18,368 bases of DNA from Methylomicrobium sp. (GTDB taxonomy: Bacteria > Pseudomonadota > Gammaproteobacteria > Methylococcales > Methylomonadaceae). Below, in pieces: positions 1 to 18,368 of the stretch; position 1 is the stretch's first letter; the number at the start of each line of letters is the position of its first letter. The notes under the pieces were generated by a model. That model did no database searches and was not told where the DNA came from. It saw only the letters and a list, made by a program, of their open reading frames with translations. The DNA is taken from the NCBI GenBank assembly GCA_007135635.1, contig SLIO01000102.1, forward strand, positions 1 through 18,368. Direction: 5' to 3'. The position numbers were made by a program, and so were the translations under genes.

Positions 1-266
1 CAACGATTACCTTTCACGAGGATCCGCAACGACGCTTTACCGTCATGGAACTCATTACAACAGACCATGCGGGGCTCCTATCAAAAATCGGACATGTGTT
101 CAACGAACACAACATTCAATTGCACGACGCCAAAATCACTACGATAGGAAGCCGTGCAGAAGACATGTTTTATTTTACCGATTATCAATCCAACCCGATT
201 CAAGACCACGAAACGTTACAAAATTTGGAGCAAGCCATTCAATCTGCATTAAGCGACCATTTATAG
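1..266 (+). CDS. glnD: PII uridylyltransferase / uridylyl-removing enzyme GlnD, C-terminal end (partial)
   Basis: This is the last 87 codons of a gene that enters from the left edge, with the first complete codon at base 3. The translation is a C-terminal ACT domain: it contains FTVMELITTDHAGLLSKIG, then a segment matching the GlnD pattern 'HxAKITTIGxRxEDxFxxTD', and ends in a short helix. GlnD senses glutamine through its ACT domains and uridylylates or deuridylylates the PII proteins (GlnB/GlnK), controlling glutamine synthetase and nitrogen regulation. The nucleotidyltransferase and HD domains lie outside the window. The ATG at base 45 is internal (a Met inside the ACT domain), not the start. 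The gene converges on the PilZ gene with a 74-bp spacer in which I see no clear terminator. Identification is by recognised similarity to E. coli GlnD. Confidence 0.93.
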   Translation, partial: TITFHEDPQRRFTVMELITTDHAGLLSKIGHVFNEHNIQLHDAKITTIGSRAEDMFYFTDYQSNPIQDHETLQNLEQAIQSALSDHL

Positions 267-3468: not shown

Positions 3469-4686
3469 TTAAATAGACTCACCCTTAGCCAACTTGGGCA
3501 AATGTCCGTCCAAGCCCATCGCGGCCCGCATAACTTTTTTATTGGCTGGCGCAATGCGTCCAGCTAAACCCAACCCCAAATTCCGCAAAATCCTAATCGG
3601 CATGATATCGTTACTGAAAACCCGGTAAAAAACATCCATGACCGTCATCATTCTTAAATTATCTGCGCGCCTTGCCTTTTCATAACGTTTCAACTCAGCG
3701 ATATCGCCAACATTCCGGCCCGATCGATAAGCGTTGACCAACACCTCGGCTAACACAGCTGCATCGAGCAAACCGATATTGACGCCCTGCCCGGCCAATG
3801 GATTTATCATATGTGCGGCATCACCGACCAAAGCGACGCCAGGCTTCACATAATCCTGAGCGTGCTGCCGTTTCAACGGAAACGAAGCGGTACCCAAAAC
3901 AGCATTGATTCGACCGAGACACTCAGGAAACGCTTCGGTCAACTCCTTCAGCAATTGATCGCTGGGTAAGGATTTTAACCGCTTGATTGCACCAGGAGAG
4001 TTATACCAAACTAGTGACCCGTATCGACCGGTTAGCGGCAAAAAAGCTTGTGGACCACTTGGCACGAATCGTTGCCAAGTAATATCCTGCTGGGGATAAT
4101 CGGTTTCCACATAAATCACCAGTGCGTGCTGCTTATAATCCCAACCGGTCACGCCGATCCCGGAGGCCTGACGTACTTTAGAATTCCCTCCATCAGCACC
4201 GACTAAGACATTCGCCGTCAAAACTGTACCGTCATCCAACTCGACCACCGAACGATGACCATTGTCATCTAAACTACAATCGATGCGCTTAATTATCGCC
4301 GGACAAAATAAATTAACATTATCGAAATCCTGCAATCGCTCCAATAAGGCTAATTGAGTTACCCGGTTTTCGACGATATACCCCAACTCACTGTAATCAA
4401 TATCGTCACTGCAAAACTCGGTATCGCCGACGGATTCCCATACTCGCATACGCCGAAAAGGGCAATAACGGCGACTCAGAACACCCTGCCACGCACCGAC
4501 CGCCTCCAAAATATGCCGCGAAGCAATACTCAACGCGGAAACCCTAAGATCATGGGGTTGGTCTGAAGAAAACTCATCGGGGAATACCTGCTCGATCACG
4601 GCAACCTTAAGACCGCTACCACCTAATCCGCAAGCTACTGCGGCCCCTACCATGCCCCCGCCGATCACTACAACATCAAAATTCAT
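3469..4686 (-). CDS. ubiF: UbiF-like FAD-dependent ubiquinone-ring hydroxylase
   Basis: This 405-aa protein of the UbiH/UbiF/VisC (COQ6) flavoprotein monooxygenase family has the expected length. It contains the N-terminal dinucleotide-binding GxGxxG in VVIGGGMVGAAVACG (6-20), the DG motif around A164-D165-G166, and the FAD-ribityl GD motif in ALVGDAAHMINPLAGQG (285-301). The segments WQRFVPSGPQAFLPL, SLVWYNSP and FPLKRQHAQDYVKPG, and the C-terminal MDVFYRVFSND...RILRNLGL, match E. coli UbiF more closely than UbiH as I remember them. UbiF hydroxylates C6 of the benzoquinol ring in aerobic ubiquinone synthesis, at the inner membrane face. Subfamily assignment (UbiF versus a broader-specificity UbiL/UbiM-type enzyme) is less certain than the family. 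It stands alone and is divergent from the GltB-like gene. Confidence 0.8.
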   Translation of the reverse strand: MNFDVVVIGGGMVGAAVACGLGGSGLKVAVIEQVFPDEFSSDQPHDLRVSALSIASRHILEAVGAWQGVLSRRYCPFRRMRVWESVGDTEFCSDDIDYSELGYIVENRVTQLALLERLQDFDNVNLFCPAIIKRIDCSLDDNGHRSVVELDDGTVLTANVLVGADGGNSKVRQASGIGVTGWDYKQHALVIYVETDYPQQDITWQRFVPSGPQAFLPLTGRYGSLVWYNSPGAIKRLKSLPSDQLLKELTEAFPECLGRINAVLGTASFPLKRQHAQDYVKPGVALVGDAAHMINPLAGQGVNIGLLDAAVLAEVLVNAYRSGRNVGDIAELKRYEKARRADNLRMMTVMDVFYRVFSNDIMPIRILRNLGLGLAGRIAPANKKVMRAAMGLDGHLPKLAKGESI

Positions 4687-5252: not shown

Positions 5253-8200
5253 ATGACTGAAATTTCCCGAATAAACCTCAAAGAACCTTTGCTTTACGAC
5301 GCGGATCTTTCCCAAGATAGTTGCGGCGTGGGTTTTATTACCCACAAACAAAGCAAACAGACTCACGAGCTGCTAGTCAAGGCTCATGAAGCGCTATGCA
5401 CGATTCCTCATCGCGGCGGCATGAGTGCAGAAGGTATCGGCGACGGAGCCGGTGTGAATGTCGACTTATCATTGAAGTTTTTTCGAAAAATCACCGGAAA
5501 CAGCAACTTGCTACTCGGGGAATTCGGCGTTGCAAACTTTTTCTTTCCGGAAGATCACGAGCGTTACGATGCATCCGCTATAGAATTGATCGAGAAGCAC
5601 CTAACTCGATACGATCTGCCGGTCATTGCCTGGCGAAACATTCCAGTGGACAGCCAAGTTATCAACGAAGCTTCCAGAAAAGCGCAACTACTGATCAAGC
5701 AAGTCATTTTCGCACGCCCGGAAGCTTTGAGTACGGCGACACATGACGAATTTGAAAAACTCATTCAGAGCGCACTGCTGGATATCGAAGCCGATGGCTT
5801 TACCCGTGACGAATTAACTGGTTTCTACCCATTATCGATGAGTTCGAGAACCCAGGTTTACAAAGGCCGTCTGAATTCTTTCGAAGTAATACCGTATTTC
5901 ATTGACCTCTACGACGAAGATCATGAAATTAACACCTTGTTTTTCCATACTCGATTCTCGACCAATACCGCACCAGCAACGATGATGGCTCAACCGTTCC
6001 GCTACATGGCGCATAACGGAGAGTTAAACACCGATAAAAAGAACCGTCTCAGTGAAAACGCCATTGCGCGCTTGCACAACAAACATATCGTCTTCCCTTG
6101 CGGGCAATCCGACTCGGGTCGTCTCGATCAAACATTGACTCGCCGAATTAATGAAGACGAACTCGATATCGTCACGGCTGTTTTAGCGATGATGCCGCCC
6201 GCATGGGAAAACGACACGACCCTGTCGCCTAAAGTACGTGCGATGCTCGAGTACTTCAGTCTCTATGAAGAAAAAAACGATGGCCCCGCAGCCCTCATTT
6301 TCTGCGACGGCATACGCGTTGGCGCGCGCCTTGACCGCTTAGGACTCAGACCCTTACGCTCAGTGGAAACCGAAATCTATCTAGCCGTCATGTCGGAAGC
6401 CGGTCAAATCGATTTCCCACCCAAGGATGTTATCAAACGCGGCCGTATAGAAGCCGGCGGAATGGTTTATTTCGACCACAGCACCGGACAAACATATAAC
6501 AGCCATCAAGTCTTGGAAAAACTCGCTGGACAAAAAGACTATGAAACGATGCTCCGCGAACGCAGCATACATATCAGCGAACTACCAGACGTCTCATTTG
6601 ATGAATTAACCCAGGTCAACGGTAAATTCAACATCGACCAGCAACACACGGCATACTCGCTGAATCAGGAAAGCTTTAAATTCCTGCTTGATCCGATGTT
6701 AAGCACCGGTCTTGAAAAAGTATCCGCAATGGGCTATGGCATTGCGCCGAACGTCCTGTCCGATGCAGAAGGCGGCATGTCCCGTTATTTCAGTCAGCGC
6801 TTTGCCCAGGTTACCAACCCGCCGCTTGATTCACTCCGCGAAAGTGACGGCATGACTTTGCGCGTAGCGCTCGGCGCCAAACCAACTTTTTCCGAAGGCA
6901 ACAGCAAGCAATTGATGATCGAGTCGCCAATACTGCAAAGAACTCAACTTGAGCAGATACGCAGGCAATCGAGTGTTAAAACCATCACACTGGACATGCT
7001 GTTCACACCGGACTTCGAAGACCCCAAAAATAATGAAGCCGTTCTTGAATCGGCAGTCAAAGACGTCTGTCAACAAATCGAACAAGCGGCCCGTGACAAT
7101 ACAGGCATCATCATTCTCAGCGACACCGGCATCAACCGCGATAAAGCAGCGATTCCCGCGTTGTTGATGATTGCTGCAGCCAATCAACACTTGGTCAAAC
7201 AGGGACTTCGCTTCCACTCTTCACTGATTGCTGAAACCGGACAAGTCGCCAGCGCTCACGATATTGCAACAATACTCGGCTTCGGTGCTTCAGCGGTCTG
7301 CTCGATTAGCGCCTACAATCGCGTCGTCAGTCAGCTTCCGCCCGAGAAACAGCCAAAAGCCCTCGATAATTTCAAAAAAGCGGCCGAAAAATCGCTGATG
7401 AAAACCATGGGCAAATTCGGGCTCTGCACCGTGGAAAGCTACATAGGCGGCGAATTTTTCGAATCGAATTATCTGGACACCAACGAACCGCGCCTGCAAC
7501 CGTATTTCCCGAATATCAACGCGCCGGTCGGCGGTGTGCGCTATGCCGACATTGCGAAAAGTGCGGCCGAATGGCATCACAAAGCATTAAGCATCAAGGA
7601 CGAAAAAGATATTCCTTTTATCGGTTTGTTCAAGGAACGGCAAGACGGCGCAGGCCATAGCTTCGGCAACCTTGCGGTCCGTGAATATATCAACATGACC
7701 GACGAGCCGATCTTGTATATTCCCCAAGACAAATCGCCCGAAGCTAGCGATACCGCTTATTTCGATTTCGGTTATGACAAACGCACGCCCGAACAAATCG
7801 ATAATTTCGGCATCACACCGGCTTATCGCAGCTTCGCCAAAAACCTGTATCAAGAGCGCGACAACCGACCTGCCGCATTACGCGATATCATGGACCTGCC
7901 GGCCGATATCAGCCAAGCGCAAAGCACGGCCGATTTCGACCGTATTTTGGGTAAGCAAAGCTTGCTCGGAAACAAAAATTACATGATTCACGGCATTGCT
8001 GTTGAACGCAACAACAGTGTCAACTATTCAATTACACTGCCTGAAAACAACAGCGCCACCCGACTGACCGCCCTCGCCGAACATTTTAAAAAACGGTTCA
8101 GCGATAGCAAAGCTGCCATCAACATTGTCAACAACGCATGCGAGATCAGACTAACCGATAGCGACAATCTATTTGGACAATATCTGGCAAATATCAAAAT

Positions 8201-10736
8201 TGCCCGTTCACCCATCGCATTAACCGACGTTCAACCCGCGCATCAAATCACTGCCAAGCTCGCATCCGGCGCAATGAGTCACGGCGCGTTGATCGCCGAA
8301 GCACACGAGGCTGTAGCGCAAGGCACCAATATAGCCGGCGCGTTCAGCAACTCCGGTGAAGGCGGCGAACACTCGAGCCGTTTCAACACGCTGCGATCGA
8401 GTAAAATCAAACAGTTCGCATCGGGCCGCTTCGGCGTCTGGGCAGGTTATCTGGCAGACCCGAACATCGAAGAAATTGAAATCAAAATCGCTCAAGGGGC
8501 AAAACCCGGCGAAGGTGGCCAGCTGCCGGCACCGAAAGTGTCTGTCGAAATCGCGGCATTACGCGGCGGAACTCCGCAAGTTGAGTTGGTCAGCCCGCCG
8601 CCACATCACGATACTTATTCGATCGAAGACCTCGGTCAATTGATTCACGATGCCAAGGCAGCTCGCGTTCGCGTCGTCGTCAAGCTGGTTTCGTCCGAAG
8701 GCATCGGCACAATTGCGGTCGGTGTCGCCAAAGCCGGCGCCGATGTCATAAATGTGGCCGGCAACACCGGCGGCACGGGCGCGGCCGCGGTCACTAGCCT
8801 AAAAAACACCGGTCGCTCGGCTGAAATCGGCATTGTCGAAGTCCATCAAGCACTCGCCTTAAACGGCTTAAGAGACAAAGTCATATTACGCTGCAGCGCT
8901 GCGCACCAAAGCGGACTCGACGTCGTCAAATCGGCGATATTGGGAGGCGATTCCTTCGAATTCGGCACAACGGCGTTAATGATGCTTCGTTGTGTCATGG
9001 CGAAAAACTGCAACGTAAAATGCCCTGCAGGATTAACCACAACGCATGAAGAATTCAAGGGCGATCCGAGAGTGCTGGCGCAATACTTCATGAATCTCGC
9101 ACATGAAGTTCGCGAAATTTTGGCGGTACTGGGCTATCACAGTTTGAGTGAAATACGCGGTCAAACCGATTTATTGCATCTGATCAACCATCCTTCTATC
9201 GTCGGACAGCTCGATTTCACGAAACTCCTGACTCAAGTGCCAGTTATCAAAGTCGAAAAACCGATTTATCTCGAAGCCAACTTCAGCATCGATGACAAAA
9301 TCATCGAACATGTCAAATCGTCGGTAATTTTCGGCAATCAGACGCAAATCATCATCGAAGGCGATGAATTCAAACTAAGCAATCGCAATAAAACGGTCGG
9401 CGGCCAAACCGCAATCGATATCGAACGCATACTGGCTTACGATTTGAACGAAGAACAAATTGCCTGTTCGAAAACGATTTATACCAACCAGCACGGCCGT
9501 CGATATCTTGCGCCCGACTCGGTCGTCGTAAAAACAACCGGTTCGGCGGGGCAAAGCTATGCCGCATTCATGAACGACGGTATGCGTATGGAACACACCG
9601 GCACCTGCAACGACGGCGTCGGCAAATCGGCCTGCGGCGGCACCTTAATCGTCGAATCCCCAGGCGGCGGCATCAAAACACCCGGCAATAACGTCCTGAT
9701 CGGTAACTTTGCACTGTTCGGCGCGACCGGCGGCAAAGCTTTCATCAACGGCGAAGCCGGCGACCGTTTCGCAGTACGTAATTCAGGCGCGATGGCGGTG
9801 GTCGAAGGCGTCGGCGATTTCGCTTGCGAATACATGACCAACGGAGCGGTACTGAATCTAGGTCACTTCGGCAAAGGTTTCTGTAACGGCATGTCCGGCG
9901 GCAATGCCTATCAATACGACCCAGAAAACCTGTTACCGAAGCTTTATGACAAAACCTCGGTCGAATTACACGACCTTACCGAAGACACCGATAGAGCAAG
10001 GGCACATGAACAATTCATATTATCCATGCTGGAACAACACGCCGATTATGCAAACTCCAGCAAGGCCAAAAATATTCTGAAAAACTGGGAAACCGAACGC
10101 AAACATTTTAAATTCACGATTCCGCTTTGGTTATATAGAACACAGACAGCCGAGTTTTTAAGCCAAACACTGGATCGCAAAGCAATGATCGAGGAATTAG
10201 CGGTCGCTTACGCTGCTCGGCAAATCGAACAAATGAAATCAGCCTATCGGCAAAAACAACCATTATTCGGCGGCTTAATCCCCGGTTACGGAGAAACCGA
10301 CACTACCTTGACCTTTAGGCTTGTCAACAGCTATGCAGTGATCGACAAAGCCTTTCGAATAGCCAGCGAGCAATTAAAGCTCCATGCCGGTCCGGTGACG
10401 TCCGAAGTTATCGAAAAAGCCGCTTGGAAATTGATTGAAACCCGTCCGCGTAAAATTCAGGACGCCCTGGTTAAGGAAACCCGTGAAGCCTTTAGTAATT
10501 ACAGCGACGAACAACTCAGCTGGCTATTGGCCGGCAAACGCCTGACCGATTATAAAACTGCTCTTGCGAACCGTGATGTGCAAAGCATCTATTCGATCGG
10601 CTCGACCGCTTGGATCATGGAACAAGACAAAATCAATCGCGAAGCCTTAACCGGTATTCCAGCCATTGAACAATATCTCGCGGGATTGGTTGGCTCCGGC
10701 ATTATTCAAGAAATGATGGCACCGACCGCGGCTTAA
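5253..10736 (+). CDS. Extended glutamate synthase large-subunit-like protein (GltB-like, 1827 aa)
   Basis: The family makes glutamate from glutamine and 2-oxoglutarate. Domains in order: a short propeptide ending before C24, the N-terminal nucleophile of a class II glutaminase domain (24 to about 420, with HRGG, RFSTNT, HNGELNT); a central domain to about 780; an FMN-binding TIM barrel (about 985-1310) with GAMSHG at 1006, GAKPGEGGQLP and SPPPHHDTYSIEDL; Fe-S cysteines C1247, C1253 and C1257; and a GXGXG helix domain (about 1336-1590). Typical GltB is about 1500 aa. The excess here is about 100 residues before the FMN domain (about 885-990) and a C-terminal tail (about 1620-1827) that I do not recognise. 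Cys spacing is CX5CX3C rather than the usual CX5CX4C. ATG 5253 was preferred over TTG 5190, which overlaps the predicted -10 box. No gltD follows; a CysJ-type diflavin reductase does. It could be a second GOGAT or a related amidotransferase. Confidence 0.82.
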   Translation: MTEISRINLKEPLLYDADLSQDSCGVGFITHKQSKQTHELLVKAHEALCTIPHRGGMSAEGIGDGAGVNVDLSLKFFRKITGNSNLLLGEFGVANFFFPEDHERYDASAIELIEKHLTRYDLPVIAWRNIPVDSQVINEASRKAQLLIKQVIFARPEALSTATHDEFEKLIQSALLDIEADGFTRDELTGFYPLSMSSRTQVYKGRLNSFEVIPYFIDLYDEDHEINTLFFHTRFSTNTAPATMMAQPFRYMAHNGELNTDKKNRLSENAIARLHNKHIVFPCGQSDSGRLDQTLTRRINEDELDIVTAVLAMMPPAWENDTTLSPKVRAMLEYFSLYEEKNDGPAALIFCDGIRVGARLDRLGLRPLRSVETEIYLAVMSEAGQIDFPPKDVIKRGRIEAGGMVYFDHSTGQTYNSHQVLEKLAGQKDYETMLRERSIHISELPDVSFDELTQVNGKFNIDQQHTAYSLNQESFKFLLDPMLSTGLEKVSAMGYGIAPNVLSDAEGGMSRYFSQRFAQVTNPPLDSLRESDGMTLRVALGAKPTFSEGNSKQLMIESPILQRTQLEQIRRQSSVKTITLDMLFTPDFEDPKNNEAVLESAVKDVCQQIEQAARDNTGIIILSDTGINRDKAAIPALLMIAAANQHLVKQGLRFHSSLIAETGQVASAHDIATILGFGASAVCSISAYNRVVSQLPPEKQPKALDNFKKAAEKSLMKTMGKFGLCTVESYIGGEFFESNYLDTNEPRLQPYFPNINAPVGGVRYADIAKSAAEWHHKALSIKDEKDIPFIGLFKERQDGAGHSFGNLAVREYINMTDEPILYIPQDKSPEASDTAYFDFGYDKRTPEQIDNFGITPAYRSFAKNLYQERDNRPAALRDIMDLPADISQAQSTADFDRILGKQSLLGNKNYMIHGIAVERNNSVNYSITLPENNSATRLTALAEHFKKRFSDSKAAINIVNNACEIRLTDSDNLFGQYLANIKIARSPIALTDVQPAHQITAKLASGAMSHGALIAEAHEAVAQGTNIAGAFSNSGEGGEHSSRFNTLRSSKIKQFASGRFGVWAGYLADPNIEEIEIKIAQGAKPGEGGQLPAPKVSVEIAALRGGTPQVELVSPPPHHDTYSIEDLGQLIHDAKAARVRVVVKLVSSEGIGTIAVGVAKAGADVINVAGNTGGTGAAAVTSLKNTGRSAEIGIVEVHQALALNGLRDKVILRCSAAHQSGLDVVKSAILGGDSFEFGTTALMMLRCVMAKNCNVKCPAGLTTTHEEFKGDPRVLAQYFMNLAHEVREILAVLGYHSLSEIRGQTDLLHLINHPSIVGQLDFTKLLTQVPVIKVEKPIYLEANFSIDDKIIEHVKSSVIFGNQTQIIIEGDEFKLSNRNKTVGGQTAIDIERILAYDLNEEQIACSKTIYTNQHGRRYLAPDSVVVKTTGSAGQSYAAFMNDGMRMEHTGTCNDGVGKSACGGTLIVESPGGGIKTPGNNVLIGNFALFGATGGKAFINGEAGDRFAVRNSGAMAVVEGVGDFACEYMTNGAVLNLGHFGKGFCNGMSGGNAYQYDPENLLPKLYDKTSVELHDLTEDTDRARAHEQFILSMLEQHADYANSSKAKNILKNWETERKHFKFTIPLWLYRTQTAEFLSQTLDRKAMIEELAVAYAARQIEQMKSAYRQKQPLFGGLIPGYGETDTTLTFRLVNSYAVIDKAFRIASEQLKLHAGPVTSEVIEKAAWKLIETRPRKIQDALVKETREAFSNYSDEQLSWLLAGKRLTDYKTALANRDVQSIYSIGSTAWIMEQDKINREALTGIPAIEQYLAGLVGSGIIQEMMAPTAA

Positions 10737-10757
10737 TTTCCAAGCTAACTCTCCTAC

Positions 10758-10800
10758 ATACCGGCACATTCCCATAAAATAACTCATGGGTTGCCGGTAT
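10758..10800 (+). promoter_or_regulatory. Stem-loop between the GltB-like and diflavin reductase genes
   Basis: ATACCGGCA (10758-10766) pairs perfectly with TGCCGGTAT (10792-10800), and CCCAT (10771-10775) with ATGGG (10786-10790), giving a two-part hairpin. There is no T-run, so it is more likely an mRNA processing or partial termination element setting the ratio of the two proteins than a full terminator. It buries an ATG at 10786. Confidence 0.55.
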
Positions 10801-10827
10801 ACGGTCAATAATTTGTATTTAAACAAG

Positions 10828-12570
10828 ATGAAAACACCTCATATTCCACTTAATGCTCCCTACAGCGATAGCCAAAAAGCTTGGCTTAGCGGCTTTTTTG
10901 CAGGCATGCATACGCAAATGATTCAAAGCGCCGGAAGCAAGAGTCAGGCTGACGCCCGCACTATTTACATTCTTTACGGTACGCAGACCGGTAACTCGGA
11001 AGCGCTCGCCAATGATGCCGCCGCATCCGCGAAAGCCTACGGCTTGAAACCGCTGATTAAAAGCATGGATGAAGTCGAATTAACCCTATTCGAAAAAATA
11101 GATTACCTGCTGATTATTACCAGCACTTACGGCGAAGGCGAAATGCCGGATAATGCCCAAATGCTTTGGGATATTGTGGCATCGGACGATGCGCCCTCAT
11201 TGAAACATATGAAATATTCGGTACTGGCGCTCGGCGATACCAGTTACGATCAATTTTGCCAAGCGGGCATCGAGTGGGATCGAAGGCTTGCCGAACTTGG
11301 CGCCGAACGCATCTATGACCGGGTCGACTGCGATGTCGACTTCGAAGAACCGGCCGAAACTTGGATATCGGCCGTCATTCCTTACATGGCTGAGGGCGCC
11401 TCGACAACCGTCATCGTCGATTCCGATGCAGCCTTGATCGAAGCGCCGAAATATAGCCGTAAAAACCCATTCCCGGCCAAACTGTTAGTCAACCGTCTGT
11501 TAACTGCGGCGGAATCCTCGAAAGAAACACGGCATTATGAAATTTCGATCGCAGGCTCCGAACTAAGCTACGAAGCCGGCGATGCGCTATGCGTGGTTCC
11601 GACCAATTGCCCTGATCTGGTCAAAGACATAGCGAAAGCGATCGGTTGCACAGGCGAAGAGGAGGTACCGATCAACGGTGAACTCATGTCCCTGAGTGAA
11701 GCCTTACGAATTCATTTCGAAATCAAACTGCCATCCAAGGAATTGATCGAGGAAATCGCGCGCCGGTCCGGCGATCAAGAACTGAATACGCTGCTAGAAG
11801 AAAGCGACAAGGAAAAACTGGCTAAGTATCTTTGGGGACGCGATACGCTCGATTTGTTATTGCAATTTCCCAACATGGATATCTCGGCAGCCGAATTCAT
11901 CGCCTTGTTGAAACCACTACAACACCGCGCCTATTCAATATCGTCGAGCAGCAAGAAATTCCCTGATGCGGTGCATTTGACCGTCGCCAGCGTTCGTTAC
12001 GAAAGCCATAACCGCCAACACAAAGGAGTGTGTTCGACCTTTCTGGCCGATCTGGTTGATGAAACAACCGATGTCCGCTGTTTTTTTACACCGAACAAGG
12101 TTTTTAGGGTTCCCGAAGACAGCAGTTTACCGATGATCATGGTCGGCCCCGGCACCGGTGTCGCACCATTTCGTGCCTTCTTGCAGGAACGCGAAGCACG
12201 TCAAGCAACCGGTATGAATTGGTTGTTTTTCGGCGACCGTAATGCTGCGACTGACTTCATTTATCGGGAAGAACTCGAAGCGTTGCAAGCCTCCGGTCTT
12301 TTAACGCGGCTGGACTTGGCATTTTCCAGGGATCAGCAGGAAAAAATTTACGTTCAAGACCGAATGCGCGAACACGGCGCGGAATTATTTGCCTGGCTCG
12401 AACAAGGCGGCTATTTCTTCGTCTGCGGTGATGCCTACCGCATGGCTAAGGATGTCGACAAAGCGCTACATGATGTGATCGCCGAACACGGACAACTCAC
12501 CGAACAACAGGCGATCGACTACGTCAATCAATTGAAAAAAGACAAACGCTACGTCCGGGATGTTTATTAA
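10828..12570 (+). CDS. CysJ-type NADPH diflavin reductase (sulfite reductase flavoprotein family)
   Basis: This 580-aa soluble protein aligns along its length with E. coli CysJ as I recall it. It opens with an N-terminal QKAWLSGFFAG segment like that used by CysJ for oligomer or partner contacts. A flavodoxin-like FMN domain follows, with the phosphate loop TQTGN (52-56) and LALGDTSYDQFC. The FAD domain has RAYSISSSS at 367 and GVCSTFLADL. The NADPH domain has GPGTGVAPFRAF from 440 and VCGDAYRMAKDV, and the protein ends in KRYVRDVY. Such proteins pass electrons NADPH to FAD to FMN to a partner. No cysI is adjacent; the only neighbour on the strand is the GltB-like gene 91 bp upstream, so it is a candidate electron donor for that enzyme. 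ATG 10828 was chosen because the ATG at 10786 lies inside a hairpin and the extra 14 residues have no CysJ counterpart. A role in sulfite reduction remains possible. Confidence 0.85.
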   Translation: MKTPHIPLNAPYSDSQKAWLSGFFAGMHTQMIQSAGSKSQADARTIYILYGTQTGNSEALANDAAASAKAYGLKPLIKSMDEVELTLFEKIDYLLIITSTYGEGEMPDNAQMLWDIVASDDAPSLKHMKYSVLALGDTSYDQFCQAGIEWDRRLAELGAERIYDRVDCDVDFEEPAETWISAVIPYMAEGASTTVIVDSDAALIEAPKYSRKNPFPAKLLVNRLLTAAESSKETRHYEISIAGSELSYEAGDALCVVPTNCPDLVKDIAKAIGCTGEEEVPINGELMSLSEALRIHFEIKLPSKELIEEIARRSGDQELNTLLEESDKEKLAKYLWGRDTLDLLLQFPNMDISAAEFIALLKPLQHRAYSISSSSKKFPDAVHLTVASVRYESHNRQHKGVCSTFLADLVDETTDVRCFFTPNKVFRVPEDSSLPMIMVGPGTGVAPFRAFLQEREARQATGMNWLFFGDRNAATDFIYREELEALQASGLLTRLDLAFSRDQQEKIYVQDRMREHGAELFAWLEQGGYFFVCGDAYRMAKDVDKALHDVIAEHGQLTEQQAIDYVNQLKKDKRYVRDVY

Positions 12571-16377: not shown

Positions 16378-18368
16378 TCAATAATATTCCTTGATGTAAG
16401 CATAAGCCCGATCAAACAAGGCCTGATCCTTATGCAATTGGTACTTTAACAACGCTTTGCGTAAAGATTTTTGCACCTCGCGTTCGCCGGAAGAGGAATG
16501 CTGTCAACCGGGAAATCGCACCACACGAACGATAGCGTCTATATCGGCGACGATGCGTTCCACGACGGCCGGCGTTTGATCGGTTTTCAACTCCAGGAAC
16601 AGCTCGGTCAGGGCCGCTTGCGGTGATTTTTCCTGTAACGCTGCTTCAGCCTGAAGCGTCTCCTTCGCCAGCTTGCACAGCTCTTTGACGAACTCGATCG
16701 AGCTGATCAAGCCCTTCTCTGCCTTGTCGCGCAATGCTTCCAATAATTCGCTGAGCTTTTTGAACTCGGGAAGATCCGCGTGCTTTTGAAACCGCTTGAC
16801 CAGCACCCTTTCCAATTGTTTGGTTTTCTTCGGATCGGGGTGGTTGAAAATATCTTCGATGACATCGGCATCCAATACATACTCTTCCAAAATATGCACA
16901 TCGCCGCCATGGATGTTTTCGTGAATCAATTGCGTGGTTTGCGCGCCCAACGACAGCCAGAGCAGCTTGCCGATATTGTCGGACGCCGGTTTAACCGACT
17001 CGTAGACTTGAGCGAGCCATTTGTAATCATTCTGGTATAAGTTCAAGAGATTATCCGGCGATAACGACTCCCATAGCTTCGCCAAATACTTAAAATCAAG
17101 GGCAAAGGCATCCTTTTTCTCGTTACTGTTGATGGCGTTCTGCGCGGCTTCCAAGCCTTCAAAACCTTCCAAGGTTCGATCTACGCCGGCAAAATGGGCC
17201 AACGTTTCCCGGATGGCTTCCGGTAATTGCTCTTTCAATGCCGACAGATTGGTGATGACCTGCTTGACGCTTTCTTCGTTGAACTCCAAGGCTTTGGCGG
17301 CATCGTCGAACACGCCGAAATAATCGACGATCCGGCCGAAGGTTTTGTGCGGGTATAAGCGATTGGTGCGGCAGATGGCCTGCAACAACGTGTGATCTTT
17401 TAACGATTTATCCAGGTACAGCGTTTGCAATATTGGCGAATCGAATCCGGTCAGCAGTTTGGCGGTGACGATGATGAATTTCAGTTCGGAATGGGGATCG
17501 TTAAACTCATCGACCACCTTTTCCTGTGCCGACTTATCCAGCGCCCACTTTTGCTTAAATTCGAAATCGTCATTGGCGGAAGTGGAAATGACTATCCGGC
17601 TGGCCTCGGTCGGAAAATACTTGTCCAGCTCCTCCTTGTAGTGCACGCAAGTTTATCGATCCGGGGTGACGATCATGGCCTTGAAGCCTTGCGGTTCGAC
17701 CTTTTCCTTGAAATGCACGGCAATGTCGGCCAGGATTTTAGAAACGCGCTCCGGCGACTTCAAGAACGCCGCCATCTTGGCCGACTTGCGGTTCAAGGCA
17801 TCGGCTTCTTCATCGGTCAAGGCGGCGCTGTCTTTGAAATCGGCAAAGGCTTGATCGATGGCGTCCTCGTCGACATGCACATCCACCAAGCGAGGCTCGA
17901 AATGCAGCGGCAAGGTCGCTTCATCGCGAATCGAATCGTGAAAGGTATAACGCGACAAATAGCCGCCTTGATCTTCCTCCGCGCCAAAGGCCCAGAAGGT
18001 ATTCTTATCGGCCTTGTTGACCGGCGTGCCGGTTAGGCCGAACAAAAAAACATTCGGCAACGCCGCGCGCATTTGCCTGCCCAAGTCGCCTTCCTGAGTG
18101 CGATGCGCCTCATCGACCAGCACGATGATATTGTCGCGGGTATTCATATTCGGCTTGGCATCGCGGAACTTGTGAATCATCGAGATGATGATCTTGCGGG
18201 TGTCGCGTTCCAATACGCTGATGCTGTCGGTGGTTTCCACATTCGCAAAGTCTGCGGCATTGAACGTACCGCTGATTTGAGTATCCAAATCGGTGCGGTC
18301 CACCAACACAATCACGGTCGGACTCTTAAGCTCAGACGCTCTACGCAGTTTTTGCGCGGCGAACACCA
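16378..18368 (-). pseudogene. hsdR: Type I restriction enzyme subunit R (hsdR), C-terminal two-thirds, disrupted by two stop codons; partial
   Basis: The gene enters from the right edge on the minus strand. The first segment (18368-17653) shows superfamily 2 translocase motifs: VDRTDLDTQ, VDEAHRTQEG (DEAH box), FGLTGTP and KAMIVTPDR. It then meets TAA at 17655-17653. Reading on in the same frame continues with HYKEELDKYFP, IVTAKLLTGFDSPILQTLYLDKS and QAICRTNRLYPHK (motifs V and VI), then the C-terminal domain to VVRFPG. There a TGA (16506-16504) stands where relatives should have Trp. After it the frame again continues (QHSSSGEREVQKSLRKALLK...AYIKEYY) to a natural stop at 16378. Both lesions look like single-base changes with no frameshift. 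HsdR supplies DNA translocation and cleavage; losing motifs V and VI should abolish this. The nuclease domain, hsdM and hsdS are outside the window. Confidence 0.88.

What the first reader, a model, noticed from the sequence alone, without database searches (positions are those of the whole stretch)
5253..12570. Glutamate synthase homologue paired with a CysJ-type diflavin reductase instead of GltD
Seen: a GltB-family gene is followed on the same strand, 91 bp later, by a complete CysJ-like FMN/FAD/NADPH reductase, with no gltD and no cysI beside either. Known: GltB normally takes electrons from the GltD beta subunit, or from ferredoxin in plant and cyanobacterial enzymes; CysJ normally serves the hemoprotein CysI. 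Inference: the flavodoxin-like FMN domain of the reductase feeds the Fe-S/FMN centre of the GltB-like protein, forming a third kind of glutamate synthase or a new NADPH-driven amidotransferase. I do not recall this architecture being biochemically described.
Basis: partly seen in the sequence, partly recalled or inferred. Interest (0 to 1): 0.78.

Follow-up and report, generated by a model that had tools for sequence, protein, structure and literature searches.

The report
Glutamate synthase with a diflavin partner
A long form of the nitrogen-assimilating enzyme glutamate synthase travels with its own NADPH-reducing flavoprotein instead of the usual GltD subunit, and in many methane-eating bacteria it is the only glutamate synthase found.

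Summary
Window 5253-10736 encodes an 1827-aa GltB homologue ("GltL"); 91 bp downstream (10828-12570) lies a complete CysJ-like diflavin reductase ("J2"). In the family (Methylomonadaceae) both occur in the same 24 of 37 genomes; 21 of those 24 lack gltD. The pair recurs, adjacent, in other Gammaproteobacteria, in Alphaproteobacteria and in an actinomycete. GltL is a deep, separate branch with its own iron-sulfur ligand spacing (C-x5-C-x3-C; canonical GltB has x4), a shorter loop after it, a ~100-aa insert and a ~200-aa helical C-terminal extension. J2 branches apart from CysJ and scores below NCBI's CysJ cut-off; separate cysJI pairs exist in 7 carriers. Methylotuvimicrobium alcaliphilum 20Z, whose genome has GltL+J2 but no canonical gltB or gltD, has a published NADPH-dependent glutamate synthase activity. 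Best reading: an NADPH-glutamate synthase whose electrons come through J2 (NADPH-FAD-FMN) instead of GltD. Glutamate synthase function is well supported; direct J2-to-GltL electron transfer is inferred. Against: in four genomes J2 lies away from GltL, in three of them behind gltBD. I found no description in the open library searched. New variant of a known kind.

The parts
5253..10736 (+). GltL: long glutamate synthase large subunit homologue, 1827 aa
   Evidence: Pfam GATase_2, Glu_syn_central, Glu_synthase, GXGXG; NCBIfam PRK11750 1061.1 bits against cut-off 1047
5322..5324 (+). Cys24 codon, expected N-terminal catalytic cysteine of the glutaminase domain after propeptide removal (role recalled from the family)
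   Evidence: Cys in 92 of 92 GltL and 14 of 14 canonical sequences aligned; residue 24 aligns to residue 1 of A. brasilense GltB 1ea0
7899..8195 (+). GltL-specific insert, residues 883-981, before the FMN barrel
   Evidence: absent from canonical GltB in the alignment; part of an alpha/beta stretch modelled with pLDDT mostly near 90
8991..9023 (+). Fe-S ligand motif C1247-x5-C1253-x3-C1257 (CVMAKNCNVKC)
   Evidence: C-x5-C-x3-C in 95 of 95 GltL loci and in 231 of 231 database proteins over 1500 aa; canonical C-x5-C-x4-C in 13 of 13 and in E. coli
10125..10733 (+). C-terminal all-helical extension, residues 1625-1827, not in canonical GltB
   Evidence: alignments; AlphaFold2 model of residues 1590-1827, mean pLDDT 86.3
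10828..12570 (+). J2: CysJ-like FMN/FAD/NADPH diflavin reductase, 580 aa (ORF opens at 10786)
   Evidence: Pfam Flavodoxin_1, FAD_binding_1, NAD_binding_1; NCBIfam cysJ 647.8 bits, below cut-off 668.15; best solved matches are sulfite reductase flavoprotein chains 6efv and 9c91

Best explanation
GltL+J2 is an NADPH-dependent glutamate synthase in which a dedicated CysJ-like diflavin reductase has taken the place of GltD. GltL hydrolyses glutamine in its glutaminase domain, channels ammonia to 2-oxoglutarate at the FMN site and reduces the iminoglutarate to glutamate. NADPH gives a hydride to the FAD of J2, J2's FMN passes single electrons to the Fe-S cluster of GltL, and the cluster feeds GltL's FMN. 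Shown here: gene pairing, co-inheritance, kept sequence motifs, a family-specific remodelled cluster region, and absence of GltD and of canonical GltB from most carriers in the family. Inferred: physical docking, the order of electron transfer, and that the C-terminal extension or the insert forms the docking surface.
For: Co-occurrence in the same 24 of 37 family genomes. Alternation with gltBD: 21 GltL only, 3 both, 12 gltBD only, 1 neither (Fisher p 2.8e-6, not corrected for kinship). Same pair on plasmids of Shinella, Neorhizobium, Ketogulonicigenium and Tsukamurella, gaps from 16 bp to a 4-bp overlap, with different annotated flanking genes, and in Sinorhizobium. GltL is the only full-length GltB-type protein in 21 of 24 carriers; in G016 and G017 no GDH of the two Pfam families searched was found either. 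M. alcaliphilum 20Z (= G001) has no canonical GltB or GltD, yet a compiled table lists NADPH-glutamate synthase at 14 +/- 1 nmol/min/mg for it (PMC5802761 section 7). Of 12 glutaminase and FMN-domain motif patterns, 10 are in 95 of 95 GltL and the other two in 89 and 88. J2 keeps FMN, FAD and NADPH motifs in 84 to 94 of 94 sequences. GltL and J2 tree distances correlate at 0.877, against 0.726 and 0.658 with a neighbouring hydroxylase (45 loci).
Against: No biochemistry, no complex structure and no interface prediction. In four genomes J2 is not beside GltL; in three of them (L190-L192) it lies just downstream of gltB-gltD, and in Crenothrix gltBD sits between GltL and J2, so J2 could there serve another protein. 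The published activity is cited to a PhD thesis that I did not see, and glutaminase plus NADPH-GDH could mimic it. G013 and G017 have other ORFs between the two genes. One distant member (L174) sits at different places in the two trees.
Confidence: 0.8

Rival explanations
1. GltL is a glutamate synthase, but it takes electrons from a ferredoxin or flavodoxin, or from several reductases; J2 is a general diflavin reductase that happens to be linked, or that also serves sulfite or nitrite reduction.
For: J2 keeps the overall CysJ architecture. In three genomes J2 stands behind gltBD and not beside GltL. A sulfite/nitrite-reductase-type protein of about 550-600 aa is present in 35 of 37 family genomes (not in G007 and G029) and needs a donor; its donor was not looked for.
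Against: That protein is also present in 12 of the 13 genomes without J2. J2 occurs in 24 of 24 GltL genomes of the family and in 0 of the 13 without GltL. Tight pairing in distant lineages. Separate cysJ-cysI pairs exist in G001-G005, G008 and G035.
Confidence: 0.12
2. GltL+J2 is not a glutamate synthase but a related NADPH-driven amidotransferase acting on another 2-oxo acid or on a secondary metabolite.
For: GltL is very divergent from canonical GltB (branch of about 2.0 substitutions per site), scores only around the NCBI cut-off (986-1070 against 1047, window and four relatives), and in Vibrio fluminensis and G480 stands beside a gltBD.
Against: Glutaminase and FMN-domain motifs kept; only full-length GltB-type protein in 21 of 24 family carriers; M. 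alcaliphilum activity; no biosynthetic pathway evident by annotation at the four annotated plasmid loci.
Confidence: 0.06
3. An accident of genome arrangement: two unrelated housekeeping genes that stay together in one clade.
For: Within the genus part of the neighbourhood (for example RapA and the hydroxylase) is conserved anyway.
Against: The pair persists in lineages with otherwise different flanking genes, including Actinomycetota, and both genes are present or absent together in the family.
Confidence: 0.02

Closest known systems
Bacterial NADPH-glutamate synthase GltBD (Azospirillum, E. coli, B. subtilis)
   Same: Same four GltB domains and motifs; best solved matches 7mfm, 6s6s, 1ea0
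   Different: No GltD in most family carriers; Fe-S spacing C-x5-C-x3-C instead of C-x5-C-x4-C; shorter loop after it; ~100-aa insert; ~200-aa C-terminal extension
Ferredoxin-dependent glutamate synthase (Synechocystis 1llw, 1ofd)
   Same: Large-subunit fold; works without GltD (recalled)
   Different: Lower similarity (731 bits against 839 for 7mfm); here a dedicated NADPH reductase gene is linked
CysJ, flavoprotein subunit of NADPH-sulfite reductase
   Same: Same FMN-FAD-NADPH layout and cofactor motifs; best solved matches 6efv and 9c91
   Different: Below the NCBIfam cysJ cut-off in the window and in 4 of 4 tested relatives (590-648 against 668; the CysJ of relative G003 scores 781.5); separate branch (support 0.982); linked to GltL, not CysI
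Nitrate-reductase-type protein fused to a CysJ-like module (L077, genome G031; contig length equals a Methylomicrobium agile record)
   Same: A CysJ-like diflavin unit attached to a probable nitrogen-assimilation enzyme
   Different: Fused to a molybdopterin oxidoreductase, not GltB; its CysJ part falls outside the J2 branch

Membership tests
NADPH-glutamate synthase GltBD | Large subunit with glutaminase, central, FMN and GXGXG domains | tested here: met
NADPH-glutamate synthase GltBD | GltD beta subunit encoded with it or in the genome | tested here: not met
   none recognised in the window; no Fer4_20 match in G000-G005, and true gltD in only 3 of 24 GltL genomes
NADPH-glutamate synthase GltBD | [3Fe-4S] ligand spacing C-x5-C-x4-C | tested here: not met
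   C-x5-C-x3-C in 95 of 95 loci and 231 of 231 proteins over 1500 aa; 13 of 13 canonical have x4
NADPH-glutamate synthase GltBD | NCBIfam PRK11750 (glutamate synthase large subunit) cut-off | tested here: inconclusive
   window 1061.1 against 1047 (met); relatives 986.4 and 1045.8 below, 1057.5 and 1069.6 above; canonical family member 1754.6
NADPH-glutamate synthase GltBD | Glutamine- and NADPH-dependent glutamate formation | not testable with these tools
   only a published activity for M. alcaliphilum 20Z (PMC5802761)
Ferredoxin-dependent glutamate synthase | Ferredoxin as direct donor and the ferredoxin-binding loop | not tested
   loop not compared; no ferredoxin gene recognised beside the pair in the window
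CysJ (sulfite reductase flavoprotein) | FMN, FAD and NADPH domains with cofactor motifs | tested here: met
CysJ (sulfite reductase flavoprotein) | NCBIfam TIGR01931 cysJ cut-off | tested here: not met
   647.8 in the window, 590-618 in 4 relatives, cut-off 668.15
CysJ (sulfite reductase flavoprotein) | Linked hemoprotein partner CysI | tested here: not met
   none recognised in the window; separate cysJ-cysI in G001-G005, G008, G035

The most novel reading that the evidence does not exclude
A third donor class of glutamate synthase: besides NAD(P)H via GltD and ferredoxin, a diflavin-dependent enzyme (GltL+J2) that bypasses GltD and its two [4Fe-4S] clusters, has a remodelled cluster site and an added helical docking module, is spread over Pseudomonadota and Actinomycetota, and is the main or only glutamate synthase of many Methylomonadaceae methanotrophs.
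Probability: 0.75. Interest if true: 0.85.

Novelty: new variant of a known kind. Interest (0 to 1): 0.78.

Why it matters
Glutamate synthase is a textbook entry point of nitrogen, described with NAD(P)H through GltD-type units or ferredoxin as donor (PMC8097209, passages read). A third route, through a P450-reductase/CysJ-type diflavin module, would show that the electron-input unit of this enzyme is swappable, and would correct annotation wherever J2 is named a sulfite reductase subunit (as in the four annotated plasmids). It bears on ammonia assimilation in methanotrophs, where a search for gltD would score the pathway as incomplete, and it offers a simpler NADPH-to-Fe-S path for study.
Full report
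WHAT IS THERE. The window is a contig of a metagenome-assembled genome (G000, 79% complete) of a Methylotuvimicrobium-like methanotroph: its GltB protein is 94% identical to that of M. buryatense 5G. The 1827-aa protein at 5253-10736 (here GltL) has all four GltB domains. The protein at 10828-12570 (here J2) has flavodoxin, FAD and NAD(P) domains. The gap is 91 bp. No gltD or cysI was recognised in the window.

HOW GENERAL IT IS. In 61 genomes (own + 60 relatives) the long GltL occurs in 24 of 37 genomes of the family and in 0 of 24 genomes of other families of the order. A close J2 homologue (over 900 bits) occurs in exactly the same 24 of 37. It is the next ORF on the same strand in 21 of 24. 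The exceptions are G026, where gltB and gltD lie between the two, G013, with two ORFs between them, one matching GmrSD_N, and G017, with one ORF between them. One search found 524 stretches encoding a relative and kept the best 80 loci, which overlap the 24. Of these 80, 72 have J2 downstream on the same strand within 8 kb. Of the 8 misses, 5 have under 900 bases of contig left (L114, L125, L153, L158, L159) and 3 (L123, L157, L172) are separations seen within 8 kb. The genomes of those 3 and of L114 hold J2 elsewhere, 71-75% identical (the other four contig-end cases were not searched). In L190, L191 and L192 (genomes of L157, L172 and L114) that J2 stands just behind gltB-gltD. This tells against exclusive pairing, though it fits a break-up of the gltL-gltB-gltD-J2 cluster seen in Crenothrix (L120).

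BEYOND THE FAMILY. The C-terminal extension was found in 2 of the 367 class-sample genomes other than G000 and G004 and in 5 of the 397 phylum-sample genomes other than the own (the profile search gave the same). These are six distinct genomes, and all six have J2 as the next gene. The system is thus sporadic outside the family. Vibrio fluminensis carries gltB-gltD, a small ORF, then gltL-J2. A protein search with one of the distant GltLs listed relatives named as Methylobacillus, Rhizobium, Agrobacterium, Shinella, Rhodococcus, Mycobacteroides, Pantoea, Enterobacter and others (120 of 350 listed; no gene context). Of 217 plasmid records with any match, 9 are of the GltL type (60-80% identity). 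I opened 5 of these 9; all 5 have J2 directly behind GltL, in 4 by annotation ('sulfite reductase subunit alpha' or similar) and in the fifth (Sinorhizobium, no annotation) by tblastn. The gaps in the four annotated cases are 10, 16 and 4 bp and a 4-bp overlap.

WHAT MARKS THE TWO PROTEINS. GltL differs from canonical GltB by Fe-S ligand spacing: C-x5-C-x3-C in 95 of 95 loci and in all 231 of the 240 database proteins that exceed 1500 aa (those proteins were collected by the extension, so they are GltL-type by choice), against C-x5-C-x4-C in 13 of 13 canonical sequences and E. coli. The loop after it is shorter (9 residues in the 69 of 95 where the pattern matched, against 13-14 in the 13 of 14 canonical where it matched). 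There is an insert at 883-981 and an extension from 1625. The methionine proposed as an electron relay (Met479 of the Azospirillum subunit; PMC8097209, passages; equivalence from my count on the alignment) lies in SAMGYG or SAMGFG in 85 of 95 GltL (pattern not matched in 10). In trees the split between 82 GltL and 14 canonical sequences has support 1.0 and a branch of about 2.0 substitutions per site, and the split between 82 J2 and five CysJ-type reductases has support 0.982. L174 is placed differently in the two trees. Tree distances of GltL and J2 correlate at 0.877, against 0.726 (GltL) and 0.658 (J2) with a neighbouring hydroxylase (45 loci). J2 falls below the NCBI cysJ cut-off in 5 of 5 tested, while the CysJ of G003 passes; it keeps the FMN, FAD and NADPH motifs in 84 to 94 of 94 sequences, depending on the motif, the NADPH-type SRxxxxKxY in 94 of 94 (motif roles recalled). 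The extension is an all-helical domain (pLDDT 86.3) without a convincing PDB match.

IS IT A WORKING GLUTAMATE SYNTHASE. True gltD (beside canonical gltB) occurs in 15 of 37 family genomes; 3 have both systems, 21 GltL only, 12 gltBD only and 1 (G029, 76% complete) neither. Other Fer4_20 matches over the cut-off in GltL-only genomes (G008, G021, G036) are in frames of about 550-580 aa; the one of G021 carries extra ferredoxin-type matches, and the one of G008 lies beside a gene that I read as pyruvate:ferredoxin oxidoreductase (my reading). I do not count them as GltD. With PF01645, 21 of 24 GltL genomes have no other full-length GltB; six (G003, G005, G007, G013, G020, G021) also have a short relative of 347-554 aa with the FMN domain. 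In G016 and G017 neither GDH family searched was found, so GltL is the only glutamate-forming enzyme seen there; most other carriers have a large GDH. G001 is M. alcaliphilum 20Z: its first contig matches plasmid NC_016108.1 in length (128,415) and at 100% over the 6000 bases compared. A published table lists NADPH-glutamate synthase at 14 +/- 1 nmol/min/mg for this organism, with GDH at 4 (NADH) and 3 (NADPH); the source is a PhD thesis (PMC5802761, section 7 and reference passages). With no canonical GltB and no GltD in that genome, GltL with J2 is the obvious candidate. A second paper reports GOGAT transcripts up with ammonium in the same strain (PMC6570963, passages); the passages do not name the gene.

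MECHANISM. Known: in GltBD electrons run NADPH, FAD, two [4Fe-4S], [3Fe-4S], FMN (PMC8097209, passages). Proposed here: NADPH, FAD and FMN in J2, then the Fe-S cluster and FMN in GltL. The remodelled cluster loop sits where the partner must approach (recalled from the family's structures); the insert or the extension may form the dock. These steps are inferred.

NOVELTY. Ten searches of the open library returned no listing whose title or abstract describes this pair; all but three papers were seen only as listings, and subscription journals and preprints are not held. I report it as a new variant of glutamate synthase: known chemistry, apparently new electron donor.

Noticed in passing
window 3-266 (+): End of an ACT-domain protein. 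In locus L055 a complete GlnD uridylyltransferase, the nitrogen sensor, lies upstream of the pair, and related ORFs lie upstream in four more loci; this tail is probably glnD too.
   Followed up: partly
window 16504-18366 (-): Two adjacent ORFs match different parts of a type I restriction enzyme R subunit/SWI2-SNF2 ATPase; the gene looks split.
   Followed up: no
L077:2672-6988 (+), genome G031: A 1438-aa fusion of a molybdopterin oxidoreductase (nitrate-reductase type, my reading) with a CysJ-like diflavin reductase.
   Followed up: partly
L053:6219-6602 (-), genome G010: A short fragment of a second J2 (about 118 aa, 72% identical) beside the intact pair, perhaps a remnant of a duplication.
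   Followed up: no
window 3469-4686 (-): A UbiH/UbiF-type hydroxylase lies upstream of GltL in 19 of 24 family loci, on the opposite strand in 18 of the 19; no link to glutamate synthesis is apparent.
   Followed up: partly
L190-L192: J2 standing directly behind gltB-gltD, away from GltL, in three methanotroph genomes.
   Followed up: partly
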